Below are positions 7,082 through 15,116 of a DNA stretch of 64,000 nucleotides, piece after piece. How positions within the stretch are numbered: the first letter of the stretch is position 1; each line of letters opens with the position of its first letter. This stretch comes from Aquabacterium commune (GTDB lineage: Bacteria; Pseudomonadota; Gammaproteobacteria; Burkholderiales; Burkholderiaceae_C), in contig NZ_SNXW01000005.1 in assembly GCF_004362855.1 (NCBI RefSeq), positions 62,001 through 126,000 on the forward strand. Direction: 5' to 3'. The translations under genes and the position numbers were made by a program. The notes under the pieces were generated by a model. It ran no database searches, was not told the DNA's origin, and worked only from the letters and a program-made list of their open reading frames with translations.

Positions 7082-8446
<1,365 letters not shown>

Positions 8447-8449
8447 GCA

Positions 8450-11422
8450 TCAAACGCTGAAGAACCGCGACTCCAGCGAGCCCTGCCAAGCCTGGTCCAA
8501 CAGCAGGTCACACACCAACTCTTGCTTGTCCGTGTGTGCGAGAGACAGCTGCCCCACCGACTGCCAGCGCTCATCTCTGAACGCTTGTGTCAGGCGAGCC
8601 AGCATGCGCTGCTTGTAGGCGGTGTCATCAGAGCCAGACAGGTGCAGACCCTTGGTCTCCAGGATCACGGTCTTACTGACGCCACCTTGTTGTACCAAGC
8701 CAAAGACGAAGTCTGGGTAAACCTTGTGGCGCTTCCAGCCTTGCAATCCGTACTGGGTTTTGGCCACATTGCGGTGCCACCATTGCAAGGCCTGTTTTCC
8801 ATCGAGGTAACCGGCGAACTGCGCCTCAAAGTCGTTCATGTCGGCGGTCTTGAGTGCGGGCTCCAACAAGCTTTTCTCGACGGGGCGGGCATCGGGCCGT
8901 GACAGCGGCACAGGTTCGTTGCTCAGGTCCAGCGTCAAATCCCTCGGCAACTCGTAGTCGGCACCATCGGCGCGCAAGGCAAACTCGATGCGGCCACTGG
9001 TCACGCCCTGCTCGAACGCATCCTGCGCCAGACGATCACGCTCGGCCTCCAGGTCCACGCGCAAGCGCTCGATCAAAGACGCGCTCGATGCCGCCAACGC
9101 GCCTTCGCTCAAACCTCGTTCAAGCAGCCGGCCCAACACCGCCTCAACCCACCCCCACACCAGCCACGCATTGGGGGCCAAATCGAGCAAAGCCCGAACC
9201 ACGCGGGCGCGGTCCAGCACGGCATCCTGGGGCAGTGCACGGCGTGAACCCGCCAAGGAGCTTCGGTTCAGGATGGAAAGATCCACATCGAATCGCTCGC
9301 CCAACAAGCCGTCGGTGTCGGGTGCCCAGGCTGCAGCCAACGCATCCACGCGCAGGCCATTCCAATCCACATGCGCCAGCACATCGCTGTCATAAACCAA
9401 CTCGCGGCGTGGCTGACCAGGCGTCACCACGGTCACACGCGGCAAAAACAAGCGCACCTTGGCCAAGGCATCGCGGCGCTTGAGCTTGACCTGACGCACA
9501 GTGGCACCAGCGGCGCCGGGGCCCGACACAGCCATGGCCAAGTCACCCATGCCCTCGCCCTCCAGCGAGTTCTTGATGGATTTCACCACATCAGCCGTCT
9601 TGGCGTCGTGGCAAAGCACATAGCAGGCGTCCAGCGCCTCCCGGCCCGTCTTGGTGACGTGCGGCTGGCGCAAAATGCGGCCCACCAATTGCGTCATCGC
9701 ACCAGGGTTGCGGCCAGCGGCCAGCGCACAAAGCACATAGGCAAAGGGACAATCCCAGCCCTCCTGCAGCGCCTGCTTCGTGATGATGACGCGCACCTCA
9801 CAGGTGGGCGCCAGCAGCTCGATGTTTTCAGGCTGCTTGAGGTCGTCTTTCTCAGAAGTCTTGATGGCGATCTGGCGGGGCGTTAAGCCCAACTGCAACA
9901 GATAGTCGCGTGCGTCCTCGGCGTGAATGAAGCCTGCATCGCGCAGGTCGGCCCCGGTTCGCTCCACCTGCACCAACAAGATGGGCCTGATGTACCGGGC
10001 CGTCTCGCCTTGCAGGGCCAGGGCTTCTGCCTGCAGCGCATCGAGCCTTTGCACAGAGGCCGCCAGGCAGCTTTGCCAATCGCTCCAGTGCTGCACGTCC
10101 ACATGGATGGGCAGCTTGATCATGTGCGCCTCGTCCAGGTCGGTGCCGCGCACGTCCACCAAGATGTTCGAGCCCGTGCCCTTGGCTGATGCGACGCGCG
10201 GTGTGGCAGACAACTCCAGCAAGAAGCCTGGGTTGAAACCATCCAGCGTGCGCAACGCGTTCTCGGTGTAGCCGTGGTGGCCTTCGTCGATCACGACCAT
10301 GGGCCGCAACAGCCGCATCACATTGCCCAGCGAGCTTTTGACGATGCTGCCTTTTTGCGCCCGCGCGCCCTCTTGGGACTGCCCCCAGGCGGCGTAGACA
10401 TCGAGGTTGGGCGCCTGCTGGATGGCATCCCAGTGCGCTTCGATGTCGTCTTCGCGCGGCAAGAAGCCCAGCACATTGCCCCGGTCGCGGAAAAAACGCA
10501 GCGTCTCTTTGCTCTGGCGTGCCGCAGACGCCAGCATCAGCACCATCACGCACAGGTGGCTGTCAACGTCCAGGCGACTCAAGGGGCTGTTTTTCTCCAG
10601 GACTTTGACGCGCCCCGCGCCGGCCACGTTCAGGATCTGCCGATACGGGTGGTCACGGTCGCTCAGTGTTTTGAGCGTCTGGCGGTAGATGGCGTCGTTG
10701 GGCACCACCCACAGCACCAGGCCCGTGTGGCGCTTGAACCATTGCGAAAACACGCTGGCCACGCTGGACGCCGCCAGCAGCGTCTTGCCGCCACCCGTGG
10801 GCACCTTCAGGCACACATTGGGAATGGCGCGACCTGCGCCATCGAAACGGCTGGAGTGGGGTTGGTCGACGAAGGCTGGGGGCAACAAGCCTTGCTGCTT
10901 GAGCGCTTGCCAAGCCTTCTTGGGGTAGTCGGCGGCTTCGCGGGCCAGGTCCTCCATGCCCTCCATGGCGCGCAGCGTGGCCACGGCCTTGTCAGACTGC
11001 GCGGCATGGCGCTGCAACTCACCCAGGTAGTCAGACACCCGCTTGAGCACCTTGCCCTGGAAGGCCTTGAGCTGTGTGCCCGCCACCTCATGCACATCGG
11101 CCGCACCGCGGCGGGGCGCCCAAAGCACCCATCGGTCGCGCTCAATGCGCTGTCGAAACTCAGGCGTCAAGCCGTCCTGCCACCAGGCGCAATCCACGGG
11201 GTAGACCATTGGCAGGCGCTTCAGCGCCTGTTCAAAGCTGGCTGCATCACGGGCAGACCAATCTGGCGCGTCGGCCACGAGGTCAATGTCTGAGCGTGCG
11301 CGCTGATCGCCTCGCGCACGCGAACCAAAGAGCCATAAGGCCTGGAGGCCCGGCGTCTGCTCACACAAGGTGTGGATGGCCCTCAGGCTGTGCGGCTCGA
11401 TGCCATGCTTGGGCTCACTCAT
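8450..11422 (-). CDS. MntA-type nucleotidyltransferase fused to type III restriction subunit (Res)
   Basis: A 990-residue fusion. Residues ~1-105 are a minimal nucleotidyltransferase: GS-X10-DXD is exact (G33, S34, D45, D47 in GSRARGDQRARSDIDL) with a likely third acidic residue D76 in YPVDCAWW. From ~112 (GTQLKAFQGKVLKRV) the sequence is a type III Res subunit: Walker A PTGGGKT (207-213), DEGH box in VVIDEGHHGY, motif VI QLVGRILRQP, and near the C-terminus a PD-D/EXK endonuclease core (D904 in YPDFVF, E922 and K924 in ILETKG). Res cuts DNA with the Mod subunit. MntA proteins normally stand alone and AMPylate the HepT toxin, which is encoded immediately upstream with an 8-base overlap. No ATG marks a separate Res start at the junction; valines 109 and 112 are GTG codons, so an internal start for free Res cannot be excluded. 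Confidence 0.9.
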   Translation of the reverse strand: MSEPKHGIEPHSLRAIHTLCEQTPGLQALWLFGSRARGDQRARSDIDLVADAPDWSARDAASFEQALKRLPMVYPVDCAWWQDGLTPEFRQRIERDRWVLWAPRRGAADVHEVAGTQLKAFQGKVLKRVSDYLGELQRHAAQSDKAVATLRAMEGMEDLAREAADYPKKAWQALKQQGLLPPAFVDQPHSSRFDGAGRAIPNVCLKVPTGGGKTLLAASSVASVFSQWFKRHTGLVLWVVPNDAIYRQTLKTLSDRDHPYRQILNVAGAGRVKVLEKNSPLSRLDVDSHLCVMVLMLASAARQSKETLRFFRDRGNVLGFLPREDDIEAHWDAIQQAPNLDVYAAWGQSQEGARAQKGSIVKSSLGNVMRLLRPMVVIDEGHHGYTENALRTLDGFNPGFLLELSATPRVASAKGTGSNILVDVRGTDLDEAHMIKLPIHVDVQHWSDWQSCLAASVQRLDALQAEALALQGETARYIRPILLVQVERTGADLRDAGFIHAEDARDYLLQLGLTPRQIAIKTSEKDDLKQPENIELLAPTCEVRVIITKQALQEGWDCPFAYVLCALAAGRNPGAMTQLVGRILRQPHVTKTGREALDACYVLCHDAKTADVVKSIKNSLEGEGMGDLAMAVSGPGAAGATVRQVKLKRRDALAKVRLFLPRVTVVTPGQPRRELVYDSDVLAHVDWNGLRVDALAAAWAPDTDGLLGERFDVDLSILNRSSLAGSRRALPQDAVLDRARVVRALLDLAPNAWLVWGWVEAVLGRLLERGLSEGALAASSASLIERLRVDLEAERDRLAQDAFEQGVTSGRIEFALRADGADYELPRDLTLDLSNEPVPLSRPDARPVEKSLLEPALKTADMNDFEAQFAGYLDGKQALQWWHRNVAKTQYGLQGWKRHKVYPDFVFGLVQQGGVSKTVILETKGLHLSGSDDTAYKQRMLARLTQAFRDERWQSVGQLSLAHTDKQELVCDLLLDQAWQGSLESRFFSV

Positions 11423-11816
11423 CGGCGCGGGCCTTCAGCACATCGAGCATGTCTTGCAACAAACGCACCGCATCGGCACGGACAAAGGCCGCCACCTGCA
11501 TGGCGGTCATCTCGTTGTAGGTGTGCGAGGTGAGATTTCGGAACTTGCGCATCTGCCCCCACCCCCCCTCATCGGTGATGACGCGGCGCTTGAACGCTTC
11601 GGGGATCACGGAATAAGCGTCTTCGTCCACGTCCACCCCTCGGGCGCGAAGCCAGCGAAAAGCGGCCTTCCAGCCGGCCTCGAAGGTGAACTCGAAGCGT
11701 TGGATCAGGGCGTCGCGCATGAAGTCGTCTTCAGGTTGCGCCAGCACCTCCACAAGGCGAGCCTGTGCGCGGGCGAAGTGGTCCAGGGCAAGCTGGAGGC
11801 GGTCGTCGATGGGCAT
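11415..11816 (-). CDS. hepT: HepT-like HEPN RNase toxin
   Basis: A 133-residue helical protein of the HEPN/nucleotidyltransferase-substrate-binding (HI0074-like) family. It carries an exact RX4HXY motif: R93, H98, Y100 in RNLTSHTY. In characterised HepT toxins this motif is the RNase active site, and the tyrosine is AMPylated by the partner MntA to silence it. The partner nucleotidyltransferase domain begins 8 bases before this gene ends, fused to the restriction subunit. I chose the ATG at 11816; an in-frame TTG at 11843 would add nine residues. The preceding gene ends 33 bases upstream. The toxin role is inferred from the family and the motif. Confidence 0.88.
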   Translation of the reverse strand: MPIDDRLQLALDHFARAQARLVEVLAQPEDDFMRDALIQRFEFTFEAGWKAAFRWLRARGVDVDEDAYSVIPEAFKRRVITDEGGWGQMRKFRNLTSHTYNEMTAMQVAAFVRADAVRLLQDMLDVLKARADE

Positions 11817-11849
11817 GGCGTTTGTTAGGTGGGTAACTTCCAAGGTGCT

Positions 11850-12671
11850 TCAAGCCATGAGACGCTGCAAAAAGGATGCATCGTTCCTTGCACTCCAACG
11901 CATCACTCCTGTGCTGTAGGTTTGCAAGATCGCCACCGCCTGTTCACTGATGGACTTGCTGGGCATGTGCGCGATGGCGTCTTGTCCGTCTTCAAGTGCA
12001 TCCGGTAGCTGCATGTCGTTGACCAACACAACTCGCTCGGCCTGAGGGCGTGTGTCTTTCAATTCCATCCAAGCAAAAGACGCCAGTTTGGCTGCTTGCA
12101 GGCTAGGAGAGGCCATCAATTTCAACAAACGCTCACGCCCTTTGCCAAGGGAAATGACGAAGTCCATAGGGTGATCAACGGTTCGGCCGGGTATTGGCAC
12201 ATTGGCAACGTAATGCGCATCACGCTCGTCTAAGAACTCTTTGACAATGGCAAAAAAATCGGACGACGTGCGCGGCGTTGCGCTCATCCACAAATCGTTC
12301 AAACGCGAAACGGCTGTGAGTAGAAAATGCGCGCGTTGCGCGAGGCTGTCAGGCGTTGCAACGGTGGTCAATCGACCGCCTTCGAAGCGCACACCGCAGC
12401 CAGCGATGGCATGCTCAACAATGCTCTGACGGCGCTCGGATTTGTCGATGCTCACGCCCATGTCCAGCAGATGCTCCAAGGTCTTGCCTGCGTCATGGAG
12501 CACCAACTCGCCGCCTTGGTGATCCAGGCAAATCTCGATGCCATCGTGGAAAGGATCCAGAAATGGTGTGCTCAAAACCTGCGATTGCCCGCGCTCGACC
12601 GTCAGGAAGCGATCTTTCAGCCACGCAAGGTACTCCCTGGCCAAGTCTGGCGCGCGTTGTTGGGTCGTCAT
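11850..12671 (-). CDS. DUF1828/DUF1829-like protein in the restriction operon
   Basis: A 273-residue soluble protein with no signal peptide or membrane segment. The N-terminal ~95 residues (DPFHDGIEICLDHQGG, ELVLHDAGKTLEHLLDMGV) match my memory of DUF1828, and the rest (FFAIVKEFLDERDAHY, PHPMDFVISLGKGRERL-like region, LVNDMQLPDALEDG) resembles DUF1829, often found joined to it. Its biochemical function is unknown to me. Its ATG overlaps the preceding gene's stop by four bases (ATGA), so it is translationally coupled to the 138-residue gene. It sits between mod and hepT, so a role in the defence module is likely. Confidence 0.75.
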   Translation of the reverse strand: MTTQQRAPDLAREYLAWLKDRFLTVERGQSQVLSTPFLDPFHDGIEICLDHQGGELVLHDAGKTLEHLLDMGVSIDKSERRQSIVEHAIAGCGVRFEGGRLTTVATPDSLAQRAHFLLTAVSRLNDLWMSATPRTSSDFFAIVKEFLDERDAHYVANVPIPGRTVDHPMDFVISLGKGRERLLKLMASPSLQAAKLASFAWMELKDTRPQAERVVLVNDMQLPDALEDGQDAIAHMPSKSISEQAVAILQTYSTGVMRWSARNDASFLQRLMA

Positions 12672-13084
12672 AACAAGGCCTCTTGCAGTCCAGCGGGGAA
12701 TCGTGTCCCGATGAGATCCAAAAACTTCACCAGCGTGTCCATGGGTCTGGCCACGTCATACCAGTCGATGGCCTCTGCCCAGGCCAAGCCCTCGCCCTCA
12801 CGGTACCAATGTAAGTGAGGGCCGCGCAGTACGTTGCCGTCAGGGTTGACATGCTGCGCAGCATTGTCGATGCGTGCAAGTGGAATGTGTCTGTCGCGCG
12901 TGCGCAGCTGCGCGGTGATTTCATGGGGATTGCGCTTCATGGAAAAGAGAAACTGCATCCCCCGATCTTCCACGGCGATCACCATCTCTTCCTGGCGCTG
13001 ATTTTCTTGCCATGTCACACATTCACGTGCCAGGGCCTCTTTGGCCAGCTTGATCAACTGATCAGCCCTCTGCTGTGTCAGCAT
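12668..13084 (-). CDS. Small protein of unknown function coupled to the DUF1828 gene
   Basis: A 138-residue soluble protein that I do not recognise with certainty; the pattern RHIPLARIDNAAQHVNPDG followed by GPHLHWYREGEGLAWA recalls an uncharacterised family (DUF6978, from memory). A purine-rich GAGGGTGGG lies just upstream of the ATG. It starts 55 bases after the mod stop and overlaps the next gene by ATGA. The conserved-looking His/Asn/Asp residues in the middle could form a binding or catalytic site. It may be one half of a second two-gene module with the DUF1828 protein. Confidence 0.7.
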   Translation of the reverse strand: MLTQQRADQLIKLAKEALARECVTWQENQRQEEMVIAVEDRGMQFLFSMKRNPHEITAQLRTRDRHIPLARIDNAAQHVNPDGNVLRGPHLHWYREGEGLAWAEAIDWYDVARPMDTLVKFLDLIGTRFPAGLQEALL

Positions 13085-13139
13085 TTCCCACCCTCGTTGT
13101 CGTTATGTATGACCCCGATTCTGAATCAGTTGGTACGGC

Positions 13140-15050
13140 TCAGGCCTCGCGGTACAGCGCAAACGGCAGCGGCGCGTAGTCCACACCGCACGCCTTGAGC
13201 TGCTTGTTGCTGAGGTACTTGGCCGGCGCAAAGACCAAGTGCCCCTTGGGCACGCGTCCCAGAGCCTTGTCGTGCGCCAGGCCCCAGGCCTGCATGGCCT
13301 GCGCCCGGCTGAGCACCAAAGCGGCCTCAGGGCTTTTGAGGTAGTTCACATCGGGCTGGTAGATGAGCCAGACGTGCTTGTCCAGTGCCTCGCCCAAGTA
13401 GTGCGTGGGTGCGCCTTTGGGCAGGGGCTGCAAAGTGCCGCCGGTGGCGGTGTAGAACAGCCAGGCGCCCAGGGCTTCAAAAGCGGGCAGGCGTTCACCG
13501 CTGAGCAGTTTTTCAAGCTCAACGGCCTCGCCCAAAGTGCAGTAGGTGAAGCTGCCGCCCAGGCCGGGGGCCATTTCGCTGATGCGGCGCACGCCTTCGA
13601 CGCGCAGAACGCCATCGTCGATCTTGGCTTCGATTTTGTCGAAGCGGGGGCGATGGGATTTTCCTTGTGCGGTGGCCACTGCTGCCGATGCAGATTGGGC
13701 TTGCTCAACAAGGTCACCGCCTGCAGCACCTTCATCGGCCAGGCCGTGTTCGCGCTTGAGGGCGTCGATCTTGGCCAGCCATTGCTCGGCCTTTTTGAAC
13801 TGCGTGAGGGTGATTTTTTCTTCGAGCAGGGTTTCGCGCTGGGTGCCCGACCACGCATAGCCTTTGATGGCGCGGCGCACGCGCTCTGCTGTGAGCGTGT
13901 CGGCATAGGCTTCGCCTTCGACCAGAATGAACTTGCGCTGCCCGCCGTCTTTGGCATTGGCCTTGAGCACTGCGTGGGCGGTGGTGCCGGAGCCGGCGAA
14001 GGAGTCGAGGATGAGGGCGTTTTCGTCTGCGCCGATCTCCAGCACGCGCTCGATCAACGCAACCGGCTTGGGCGTGATGGTGCTTTCTTGATTTTTAAGC
14101 ACGCCCATTTCAAGCAAGGTTTTTTTGGCGTCTTGCGTGTGGCCCACTTCATCGTAGAACCAGAGTGTTTGTGGGACGCGGCCTTGCTTGACTTCGCTGA
14201 GGTAACGCTTTATCGCAGGTATGTTATTTCCATCCTCTCCCCACCAAATTCGTCCCTCAGCATCCATTTCTTTGAACTTTGACTCTTTGACGCGCCAGTA
14301 GCTGCCCGGGGGTGGCCCCTCAATGATGCGACCGCTTGGACATGTGATGGGATATGTCCCTTCGCTGTAAAAGTTGCGCGCAGACAAATCGCTGGCCTTC
14401 CAAGGGCCACGTTTGTCATTGCCTTGGTTTTCATAGCGCGCATCCATCTCTGCAGTGCGCTCGAGCAGTCGAGGCCGCCACAACGCTCGGTCTTTCGCGA
14501 TAACCAACAAATGGTCGTGGTCTTCGCTGAAAAACTGCGCCGTGCTTTTGGGCGAGTAGTTCTTCTGCCAAATCACATTGGCAATGAACGCGTCTTCCCC
14601 AAAAATCTCATCCAACACCATCCGCGCCCGGTGCACCTCGTTGTCGTCCAGCGTGATCCAGATCGAGCCGCGCTCGCTCAGCAGTTCGCGCAGCAGCACC
14701 AGGCGGGGCCACATCATGCACAACCACTTGTCGTGGCGCAGCATGTCTTCGCCGTCCACCGGGTTGGTGTTCAGCCACTCTTTCATGATGGGCGAGTTCA
14801 CGCCGTCGCTGTAGCACCAGCCTTCGTTGCCGGTGTTGTAGGGCGGGTCAATGAAGATCAAATCAACCGAGCCGGCATAGCGTGGCAGCAGGCTTTTGAG
14901 CGCGTGCAGGTTGTCGCCATGCACCACGAGGTTGCCGTTCAAATCGGCCGGGCCCACGCCTTTGGCCGCGTCTGCCACCAGCGGGCGGTAGGGCACGCTC
15001 AGGTGGTGGTTGTAGACGTACTCTTTGCCTTTGAAGACGATTTCGGGCAT
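13140..15050 (-). CDS. Type III restriction-modification DNA methyltransferase (Mod)
   Basis: A 636-residue beta-class N6-adenine methyltransferase, first gene of the five-gene operon. Catalytic motif IV DPPYNTGN is preceded by DLIFI around residue 67, and the SAM-binding motif I appears later as DSFAGSGTTAHAV (around residue 345), the order expected for Mod subunits. The middle region should carry target recognition; the specificity cannot be read. The C-terminal ~200 residues include a VEGVRRISEM helix and a final LPFALYREA. Mod protects host DNA and provides sequence recognition for Res. The partner Res lies ~1.7 kb downstream, separated by three small genes, instead of directly adjacent as usual. 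Confidence 0.93.
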   Translation of the reverse strand: MPEIVFKGKEYVYNHHLSVPYRPLVADAAKGVGPADLNGNLVVHGDNLHALKSLLPRYAGSVDLIFIDPPYNTGNEGWCYSDGVNSPIMKEWLNTNPVDGEDMLRHDKWLCMMWPRLVLLRELLSERGSIWITLDDNEVHRARMVLDEIFGEDAFIANVIWQKNYSPKSTAQFFSEDHDHLLVIAKDRALWRPRLLERTAEMDARYENQGNDKRGPWKASDLSARNFYSEGTYPITCPSGRIIEGPPPGSYWRVKESKFKEMDAEGRIWWGEDGNNIPAIKRYLSEVKQGRVPQTLWFYDEVGHTQDAKKTLLEMGVLKNQESTITPKPVALIERVLEIGADENALILDSFAGSGTTAHAVLKANAKDGGQRKFILVEGEAYADTLTAERVRRAIKGYAWSGTQRETLLEEKITLTQFKKAEQWLAKIDALKREHGLADEGAAGGDLVEQAQSASAAVATAQGKSHRPRFDKIEAKIDDGVLRVEGVRRISEMAPGLGGSFTYCTLGEAVELEKLLSGERLPAFEALGAWLFYTATGGTLQPLPKGAPTHYLGEALDKHVWLIYQPDVNYLKSPEAALVLSRAQAMQAWGLAHDKALGRVPKGHLVFAPAKYLSNKQLKACGVDYAPLPFALYREA

Positions 15051-15082
15051 TGGCGTGGTGCGCTGGGGAAACAGCGGCTCAT

Positions 15083-15116
15083 TCTATAAGGCAGCCGCCA
15101 ATGTGCTGCCAATGTG
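15083..15116 (-). promoter_or_regulatory. Candidate promoter and direct-repeat operator of the restriction operon
   Basis: On the minus strand, TTGGCA (15107-15112) and TATAGA (15083-15088) are spaced by 18 bases and could be a sigma-70 promoter for mod. The region holds two copies of GCCAATGTG (15097-15105 and 15108-15116, plus-strand reading) at an 11-bp period. One copy overlaps the -35 box, the geometry expected of an operator. Seen by eye only. Confidence 0.35.

What the first reader, a model, noticed from the sequence alone, without database searches (positions are those of the whole stretch)
8450..11816. HepT toxin paired with an MntA antitoxin fused to a type III restriction enzyme
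Seen: a HEPN protein with exact RX4HXY (R93, H98, Y100) overlaps by 8 bases a gene whose first ~105 residues carry exact GS-X10-DXD (G33-S34, D45, D47) and whose remaining ~880 residues are a complete Res subunit (Walker A, DEGH, QLVGRILRQP, PD-D/EXK). Known: HepT is an RNase toxin silenced when MntA AMPylates the RX4HXY tyrosine; PrrC, also a HEPN RNase, is held inactive by a type I restriction complex and released by a phage anti-restriction peptide. Inference: here the restriction enzyme itself is the antitoxin, so a phage that disables or triggers loss of Res frees HepT and aborts infection. I do not recall a described system with this fusion.
Basis: partly seen in the sequence, partly recalled or inferred. 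Interest (0 to 1): 0.95.

Follow-up and report, generated by a model that had tools for sequence, protein, structure and literature searches.

The report
Toxin antidote built into restriction enzyme
A bacterial DNA-cutting defence enzyme carries, as its first domain, what looks like the antidote to an RNA-cutting toxin encoded just before it, and bacteria seem to swap this toxin-antidote pair in and out of the same enzyme, which suggests a fail-safe that kills or stalls the cell if the defence is lost.

Summary
A HEPN gene (RX4HXY intact) overlaps by 8 bp one open gene of 990 codons that joins an MNT nucleotidyltransferase domain (GSX10DXD plus third Asp) to a complete type III Res subunit.

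It is not an error or a one-off. 44 distinct fused proteins (window included; relatives 56-80% identical to it) group as one clade. All 44 keep the MNT catalytic residues. 42 of the 43 with readable upstream DNA have HEPN directly before the fusion, 41 of those 42 with the intact motif. None of 36 unfused relatives has this HEPN.

New here: HEPN changes with MNT but not with Res. 14 of 20 pairs with Res at least 80% identical carry HEPNs only 28-55% identical; in the five profiled, DNA identity drops at the end of Mod and recovers from the MNT-Res junction on. The toxin-antidote pair behaves as an exchangeable cassette on a conserved restriction chassis.

Best explanation: a type VII (HepT/MntA-like) toxin-antitoxin whose antidote became part of Res, so that active HEPN appears only when Mod-Res is lost or fails. 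The AMPylation chemistry is inferred from homology; the phage-guard role is untested. Coupling HEPN to restriction was proposed in 2013; my searches found no report of this fusion or exchange.

The parts
13140..15050 (-). Mod, type III DNA methyltransferase subunit (636 aa; DPPY at 68, F-x-G-x-G at 351)
   Evidence: PADLOC MTase_III E 1e-188, PF01555; motifs (motif names recalled)
12668..13084 (-). DUF6978 protein (PADLOC candidate PDC-M24A); extra module, not part of the conserved core
   Evidence: found between Mod and HEPN in 2 of 44 fused loci (window, L052) by tblastn
11850..12671 (-). DUF1828/DUF1829 protein (PADLOC candidate PDC-M24B); next to the DUF6978 gene
11415..11816 (-). HEPN (HI0074/PF08780 family), predicted RNase toxin, RX4HXY = R93, H98, Y100; start may lie upstream at TTG 11843
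11111..11422 (-). MNT nucleotidyltransferase domain (residues 1-104 of the fusion), predicted antidote; G33, S34, D45, D47, D77
   Evidence: fold like 8xeo_B MNT antitoxin, TM 0.91 by target length, rmsd 1.3
11075..11110 (-). linker (residues 105-116), residues 105-112 below pLDDT 50, least conserved stretch; cassette exchange boundary
8450..11074 (-). Res, type III restriction subunit (residues 117-990): Walker A 210-214, DEGH 379-382, motif VI 578-585, PD-ExK 904/922/924

Best explanation
A type III restriction-modification operon with a built-in type VII toxin-antitoxin. HEPN is an RNase toxin. The MNT domain at the front of Res AMPylates HEPN at Y100 and silences it. Because the antidote is the first domain of Res, it is made right after the toxin (8-bp overlap, translational coupling inferred) but then lives and dies with Res, a subunit reported in EcoP1/EcoP15 to need Mod for stability. 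When MNT-Res is lost, degraded or not replaced (Mod lost, operon silenced, phage takeover), freshly made or de-AMPylated HEPN cuts RNA and stops the cell, both as a second line after restriction and as a penalty for losing it. The HEPN-MNT pair is exchanged as a cassette between operons while Res is kept. Shown here: anatomy, conservation of both active sites, near-obligate co-occurrence, one fused clade, HEPN-MNT co-change, cassette exchange. Inferred: toxicity, AMPylation, dependence on Res stability, phage role. My odds: HEPN is a toxin neutralised by the MNT domain 0.8; antidote supply tied to Mod-Res integrity 0.5; main benefit is anti-phage back-up rather than retention of the operon 0.5.
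For: Co-occurrence: HEPN directly before the fusion in 42 of 43; this HEPN in 0 of 36 unfused loci. Fused Res one clade, support 100 (43 fused, 36 unfused); fused MNT one clade, support 96, against 20 other MNTs. Both active sites are kept although the HEPNs differ on average at 56% and the MNTs at 55% of positions (32 loci): MNT 44 of 44, HEPN 41 of 42. PMC3710099 says that HEPNs fused to MNT typically lack the RNase residues (passage), so retention speaks for an active toxin. dN/dS 0.06-0.45 in HEPN, MNT and Res for 10 close pairs (one HEPN value undefined, several dS near or above 1). The exceptions have the polarity of a toxin: L060 HEPN has R for the catalytic H, L066 has lost HEPN, both keep MNT; no such HEPN beside a Res without MNT was found. 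HEPN-MNT distance r 0.53, partial on Res 0.55, 0 of 5000 permutations; HEPN-Res -0.02 (37 rows). Assayed relatives: the Legionella HEPN/MNT pair, matched by P0002 at E 1e-11, also 8-bp overlap, poly-AMPylation lost on changing GSX10DXD (PMC11586414 passages); HepT/MntA (PMC7641770 passages). That MNT lacks helix 4 and binds by its alpha2 face, so its C-terminus could be extended; the model here shows no helix there either. Mod protects Res from proteolysis in EcoP1/EcoP15 (postulated; PMC3874151 passage).
Against: No wet-lab evidence for any member. The MntA and HepT equivalog cut-offs are missed. AMPylation is covalent, so loss of Res would act slowly. MNT is N-terminal, so truncated Res could still protect. 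HEPN type is independent of Res type, so no fine-tuned Res-HEPN signalling is visible. MNT, unlike HEPN, keeps a weak link with Res (r 0.19; 0.38, partial 0.33). The HEPN tree fits one fused clade but with support 0. L066 keeps an intact MNT without HEPN, which could mean a second MNT role; and 5 of 30 family HEPN loci showed no MNT match in the stretch fetched, so HEPN of this family is not always paired. No fused copy among 3 viral hits. 39 of the 43 fused records are titled MAG.
Confidence: 0.6

Rival explanations
1. Plain addiction module: the HEPN-MNT cassette mainly keeps the R-M operon (and itself) in the population, with no phage sensing. Fusion only guarantees that the antidote cannot be lost without Res.
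For: The operon sits as an insertion between dctD and lpxL, which are adjacent in 3 of 14 same-genus loci, and has lower G+C (0.56-0.63 against 0.70-0.71). Unfused relatives hold other toxin-antitoxin-type genes in the same Mod-Res gap: DUF433/DUF5615, PIN, NTase/HEPN PF05168, DUF4160 or DUF2442.
Against: AMPylated toxin is not quickly freed, unlike classical post-segregational killing; cassette diversity is not needed for mere addiction; N-terminal placement protects poorly against truncation of Res.
Confidence: 0.25
2. Regulator of restriction: MNT (with HEPN as substrate-binding partner) modifies Res or Mod, for example to delay restriction after entry into a new host.
For: Older reading of HI0074 as substrate-binding subunit (TIGR01987 name); res translation is delayed on entry for EcoP15I (PMC12707154 passage); L066 keeps MNT without HEPN.
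Against: The RNase residues R and H would not need conservation, yet 41 of 42 HEPNs keep them; near-identical Res carry very different HEPN-MNT pairs; 36 unfused Res do without.
Confidence: 0.1
3. Passenger or artefact: chance read-through of two neighbouring genes, or chimeric contigs explaining the apparent cassette exchange.
For: 39 of 43 fused records are titled MAG and one more is a bin; one type I case (L148) looks like an accidental fusion through a REP-like repeat.
Against: 44 fused proteins with invariant catalytic residues and dN/dS below 0.5; three records read as isolates (L041, L064, L076, titles); identity drops at the end of Mod in 5 of 5 swapped pairs profiled and recovers from the MNT-Res junction on, sharply in 4 and gradually in L044/L049, with the unswapped control high throughout.
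Confidence: 0.05

Closest known systems
HepT/MntA (HEPN/MNT, type VII toxin-antitoxin), in particular the pair of PMC11586414
   Same: HEPN then MNT, 8-bp overlap, RX4HXY and GSX10DXD, MNT without helix 4, fold TM 0.91 to 8xeo_B
   Different: Known MNT antitoxins are separate proteins under 150 aa (PMC7641770 passage); here MNT is the N-terminal domain of a type III Res, inside an R-M operon
Type III restriction-modification (EcoP1I/EcoP15I class)
   Same: Mod-Res operon, MTase_III and REase_III profiles, Walker A, DEGH, PD-ExK
   Different: Extra N-terminal nucleotidyltransferase domain and a HEPN gene between Mod and Res; Res of unfused relatives starts at about residue 117-121. Sequence similarity to EcoP15I Res itself is remote (E 0.07)
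PrrC-EcoprrI and the 2013 proposal that HEPN RNases back up R-M systems (PMC3710099)
   Same: HEPN RNase gene inside an R-M operon, predicted to be held off by the R-M enzyme
   Different: PrrC is an ABC-ATPase-HEPN protein masked by a type IC enzyme; here silencing would be by AMPylation from a domain of a type III Res. The 2013 table says HEPN-M proteins are occasionally fused to MNT, a REase or methylases and mentions an archaeal HEPN family in operon with MNT and REase (DUF1626) proteins; an MNT-Res fusion is not in the passages and section I saw

Membership tests
HEPN/MNT (HepT/MntA) type VII toxin-antitoxin | HEPN with RX4HXY next to MNT with GSX10DXD | tested here: met
   Window; family 41 of 42 HEPNs and 44 of 44 MNTs
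HEPN/MNT (HepT/MntA) type VII toxin-antitoxin | Score above NCBIfam HepT and MntA equivalog cut-offs | tested here: not met
   26.7 and 33.9 bits against 60 and 60; HI0074 subfamily cut-off is met (69.4 of 55.8)
HEPN/MNT (HepT/MntA) type VII toxin-antitoxin | MNT fold | tested here: met
   AlphaFold2 blocks of residues 11-100 at pLDDT 88-91; Foldseek 8xeo_B TMt 0.91, rmsd 1.3 over 98 columns
HEPN/MNT (HepT/MntA) type VII toxin-antitoxin | Antitoxin is a small separate protein | tested here: not met
   In one frame with Res in 44 of 44; no conserved internal start
HEPN/MNT (HepT/MntA) type VII toxin-antitoxin | HEPN toxic; (poly)AMPylated on the motif tyrosine by MNT | not testable with these tools
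   Needs expression and mass spectrometry
Type III restriction-modification | Mod (DPPY, F-x-G-x-G) and Res (SF2 ATPase plus PD-ExK) in one operon | tested here: met
   Walker A, DEGH 44 of 44, PD-ExK 43 of 43 (one truncated)
Type III restriction-modification | NCBIfam type III endonuclease model PRK15483 | tested here: not met
   15.4 bits against a cut-off of 564; a distant branch of Res, named by PADLOC REase_III
Type III restriction-modification | One-strand methylation, two inverted sites, Mod2Res1 assembly | not testable with these tools
   Biochemistry
PrrC-type R-M guarded RNase | ABC-ATPase fused to HEPN, type I R-M host | tested here: not met
   HEPN is a 133-aa single domain, R-M is type III
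PrrC-type R-M guarded RNase | RNase released when the R-M enzyme is inhibited | not testable with these tools
   Needs phage or anti-restriction challenge

The most novel reading that the evidence does not exclude
An integrity-sensing restriction system with polymorphic toxin-antidote cassettes: the antidote activity lasts only as part of an assembled Mod-Res machine, so any phage or mobile element that dismantles, degrades or outcompetes the machine triggers an RNase; and the HEPN-MNT cassette is swapped between chassis, much as R-M specificity domains are (recalled), to escape phage-borne antidotes or toxin inhibitors.
Probability: 0.35. Interest if true: 0.9.

Novelty: new variant of a known kind. 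Interest (0 to 1): 0.76.

Why it matters
It would be a direct physical link between DNA restriction and an RNA-level suicide switch, in one polypeptide, conserved in records named as Beta- and Gammaproteobacteria. It makes the 2013 proposal that HEPN toxins guard restriction systems testable in a compact operon, and suggests how a system could punish loss or sabotage of its own restriction enzyme. The cassette exchange on a constant Res gives ready-made natural pairs (for example L059 and L073, Res 97% identical, HEPN 42%) to test whether antidotes are specific to their toxin and whether Res matters for toxin control.

Tried and rejected
Rejected: sequencing error or hidden stop at the junction (44 fused proteins); internal translation start that would split the product; recent one-off fusion (clades); HEPN degenerate or domesticated (41 of 42 keep the motif).

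Considered and dropped: a second kind of fusion, MNT to a type I specificity subunit, in L127/L148. The joint runs through a REP-like palindromic repeat of which another copy lies about 900 bp upstream, so it may be accidental. Another same-family locus (L156) has HEPN and MNT unfused between HsdM and HsdS; 2 of the 20 regions fetched are of this kind, with type I queries taken from L148 itself, so more distant systems could be missed, and some regions end at contig edges.

Led nowhere: plasmids (57 records matched; in the 40 rows shown no match starts before residue 85); viral contigs (3 hits, starting at residues 110, 115 and 121). The model of the whole fusion has mean pLDDT 66.8, so only the MNT domain and the linker are used from it; its best Foldseek hits are SF2 helicases at low TM-score, and EcoP15I is not among the 50 rows shown. 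The MNT tree has few columns and many open forks, and one of its 20 'standalone' MNTs is L127, in frame with HsdS. Inter-protein contacts could not be predicted. Metagenome scan: cap 0, not run. The second structure job and the phrogs library were not used.

Limits of counts: one search kept the best 80 of 305 relatives. Fused copies seen are at least 56% and unfused ones at most 51% identical in the best segment; L070, L074 and L090 match only a later part of Res and are counted in neither group; fused copies on short contigs may be among the 225 not fetched. Mirror-tree rows: one search used 32 loci with a long Mod; one search used 37 of 40 after removing near-copies; L072 (truncated), L069 (partial HEPN), L045 and L066 (no HEPN seen) were left out. 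MNT tree: 20 of 24 other pairs (4 with short matches dropped). Swap profiles were made for 5 chosen swapped pairs and 1 control out of the 20 pairs with Res at 80% or more (14 swapped, 6 not). One search used a pattern too narrow (29 of 44) and was replaced.
Full report
WHAT IS THERE. On the minus strand an operon runs Mod (15050-13140), DUF6978 (13084-12668), DUF1828/1829 (12671-11850), HEPN (11816-11415) and a 990-codon gene (11422-8450). HEPN carries R93-X4-H98-X-Y100; the last gene carries G33-S34-X10-D45-X-D47, then Walker A 210, DEGH 379, motif VI around 581 and PD-ExK at 904/922/924; the two genes overlap by 8 bases. Pfam, NCBIfam and PADLOC name the parts NTase_sub_bind/HI0074, Polbeta/NTP_transf_2, REase_III and MTase_III. 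The Res is remote from EcoP15I itself (E 0.07) and far under the NCBIfam PRK15483 cut-off, so it is a distant branch of type III Res. The own genome has one copy and one PF08780 protein.

THE FUSION IS REAL AND NOT RECENT. A scan of one genome per species (best 80 of 305 relatives kept) and a survey of 399 family genomes gave 51 loci with MNT and Res in one frame, 44 of them distinct, window included. Identity to the window is 56-80%. G33, S34, D45, D47 and D77 are present in 44 of 44, Walker A, DEGH and motif VI residues in 44 of 44, PD-ExK in 43 of 43 with one contig ending earlier. The MNT domain as a whole is only moderately conserved (mean majority frequency 0.58 against 0.81 for residues 118-630), so the constancy of its catalytic residues is not background. 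The stretch 105-117 is the least conserved (0.46) and residues 105-112 are modelled with pLDDT under 50. No internal start is conserved. The 36 unfused relatives start at or near the residue that aligns with 117-121. In trees, fused Res are one clade (support 100; 43 and 36 rows; quick tree with a long-branch warning) and fused MNT one clade against 20 other MNTs (support 96, few columns); the HEPN tree also needs only one change (41 and 24 rows) but with support 0. One origin is the simplest reading.

HEPN GOES WITH IT. A HEPN gene lies directly before the fusion in 42 of the 43 loci where that stretch is on the contig: L045 is cut off; L066 has no HEPN, its Mod ending 5 bases before the fusion. 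The motif is intact in 41 of 42; L060 (same locus as L008, from the one other same-genus genome that has the fusion) has R in place of the catalytic H. A HEPN profile found nothing in the 36 unfused loci (2 of them without Mod on the contig); an MNT profile found three, of which two (L092, L095) are unfused NTase/HEPN pairs of another HEPN family, PF05168, also sitting between Mod and Res, and one (L079) lies downstream of Res. Away from Res, HEPNs of this family are not always paired: 5 of 30 family loci had no MNT match in the stretch fetched. Prevalence by sampling: fused copies in 8 of 399 family genomes, 4 of 399 order genomes and 1 of 398 phylum genomes, own genome counted each time; the three order genomes besides the own are L062, L067 and L069 again.

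HEPN AND MNT FORM AN EXCHANGEABLE CASSETTE. Among 37 loci, pairwise distances of HEPN and MNT correlate (r 0.53; 0.55 after removing Res; 0 of 5000 permutations as high), while HEPN and Res do not (-0.02; 2992 of 5000 permutations as high) and MNT and Res do weakly (0.19). One search, on 32 loci, gave 0.52, 0.10 and 0.38 (MNT-Res partial 0.33). The nearest neighbour by HEPN is the nearest by MNT in 26 of 40, by Res in 11 of 40; MNT and Res agree in 11 of 40. HEPN motif class (SHTY, SHEY, SHAY types) needs 6 changes on the MNT tree but 15 on the Res tree, where shuffles need 14.6 on average and 11 at least. Of 20 pairs with Res at least 80% identical, 14 have a HEPN at 28-55% and an MNT at 37-61%; the other 6 have HEPN at 77% or more. 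Examples: L059/L073 Res 97, Mod 80, HEPN 42, MNT 50; L055/L057 Res 88, Mod 91, HEPN 29, MNT 49; L032/L039 Res 92, HEPN 38, MNT 41. DNA profiles in 60-base windows of five such pairs fall from mostly 70-100% to mostly 40-70% (one window at 1%, a gap) at the end of Mod, and rise again at or just past the MNT-Res junction to mostly 80-100% in four pairs, more gradually (68-80%, then 80-95%) in L044/L049. The unswapped control L056/L073 stays at 80% or more. The first or last window of the cut stretch is low (10-43%) in several pairs, the control included, which I take as an edge effect of the alignment. The cassette of L059 is closest to those of L058 and L049, which sit on a different Res branch. 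dN/dS is 0.06-0.45 for all three parts in 10 close pairs, apart from one HEPN value that could not be computed and with several dS near or above 1, so fast drift does not explain the pattern.

HOW IT MOST LIKELY WORKS. Established relatives: MntA transfers AMPs to the tyrosine of RX4HXY in HepT and reduces its toxicity (PMC7641770, passages). In the pair of PMC11586414, whose HEPN is among the nearest PDB chains to the window's HEPN (E 1e-11), the genes also overlap by 8 bp, changing GSX10DXD abolishes modification, the MNT lacks the C-terminal helix 4 used by MntA and binds HEPN by its alpha2 side, and degradation of labile MNT or de-AMPylation is proposed to free the toxin (passages; sections 11 and 17 read). 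The MNT domain here has the same fold (8xeo_B, TM 0.91, rmsd 1.3) and no helix after its last strand before the linker, which would let its C-terminus be joined to Res. N-terminal placement means the antidote is made before the long Res part. In EcoP1/EcoP15, Mod raises the amount of Res and was postulated to protect it from proteolysis (PMC3874151 passage). Tying the antidote to Res would therefore tie it to the assembled Mod-Res complex. I infer a fail-safe: lose or sabotage the complex and new or de-AMPylated HEPN acts. This resembles PrrC with EcoprrI, where inhibition by T4 Stp releases the RNase (PMC12707154 passage), and follows the 2013 proposal that HEPN RNases back up R-M (PMC3710099, section 10 read). 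[quoted passage not shown]

SURROUNDINGS. The operon (G+C 0.56-0.63) interrupts dctD and lpxL (0.70-0.71; gene names recalled), which are adjacent in 3 of 14 same-genus loci; the other 11 have no dctD in the roughly 1.5 kb fetched upstream. It is most simply a horizontally acquired unit. The Mod-Res gap is a recurrent landing place: besides HEPN it holds DUF6978/DUF1828 in the window and L052, a Ppl-like ATPase plus an AlbA_2 protein in L046, and in unfused relatives (gap over 150 bp in 13 of the 34 with Mod on the contig) DUF433/DUF5615, a PIN protein, NTase/HEPN, DUF4160 or DUF2442, DUF3800. DUF433 next to PIN genes is a predicted antitoxin in PMC2701414 (passage); DUF4160/DUF2442 as a pair is recalled. 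The fused system looks like the case where such a guest became part of Res.

NOVELTY. Searches of the held open-access library listed no paper whose title, abstract or passages that I saw describe an MNT domain fused to a type III Res or exchange of HEPN/MNT cassettes. Subscription papers and preprints are not covered; of the papers named I saw passages or single sections, of the rest only listings. It is a new variant built from two known kinds, not a new kind of biochemistry.

Noticed in passing
window 11850-13084; L052 6285-7492: A DUF6978/DUF1828 gene pair (PADLOC candidates PDC-M24A/B) is nested between Mod and HEPN in the window and in L052 (67% and 65% identical), with the lowest G+C of the window's operon (0.56).
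   Followed up: partly
L077, L088, L091, L092, L095, L097, L098 between Mod and Res: In unfused relatives the gap between Mod and Res is repeatedly filled with toxin-antitoxin-type or other genes (DUF433/DUF5615, PIN, NTase/HEPN PF05168, DUF4160 or DUF2442, DUF3800): a hotspot for guest modules.
   Followed up: partly
L046 3590-7545: A 900-aa Ppl-like SMC-type ATPase and an AlbA_2/Schlafen protein are inserted between Mod and HEPN: a possible defence module nested inside this operon.
   Followed up: partly
L148 4518-12527 (same place as L127): Type I operon HsdM - HEPN - MNT in frame with HsdS - HsdR; the MNT-HsdS joint runs through a REP-like palindromic repeat. L156 has the same order unfused.
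   Followed up: partly
L060 7531-7968; L066 around 587: Natural toxin losses in the fused clade: HEPN of L060 has R in place of the catalytic H; L066 has no HEPN before the fusion; both keep an intact MNT domain on Res.
   Followed up: partly
L074 6324-9947; L116: Res matches only from residue 339 on, and in L074 Mod is matched in two pieces with no HEPN or MNT found: perhaps a decayed or deleted copy of the system.
   Followed up: no
window 8446-15114: The whole operon is an insertion between a dctD-like and an lpxL-like gene that are adjacent in L172, L179 and L185 (3 of 14 same-genus loci looked at).
   Followed up: yes
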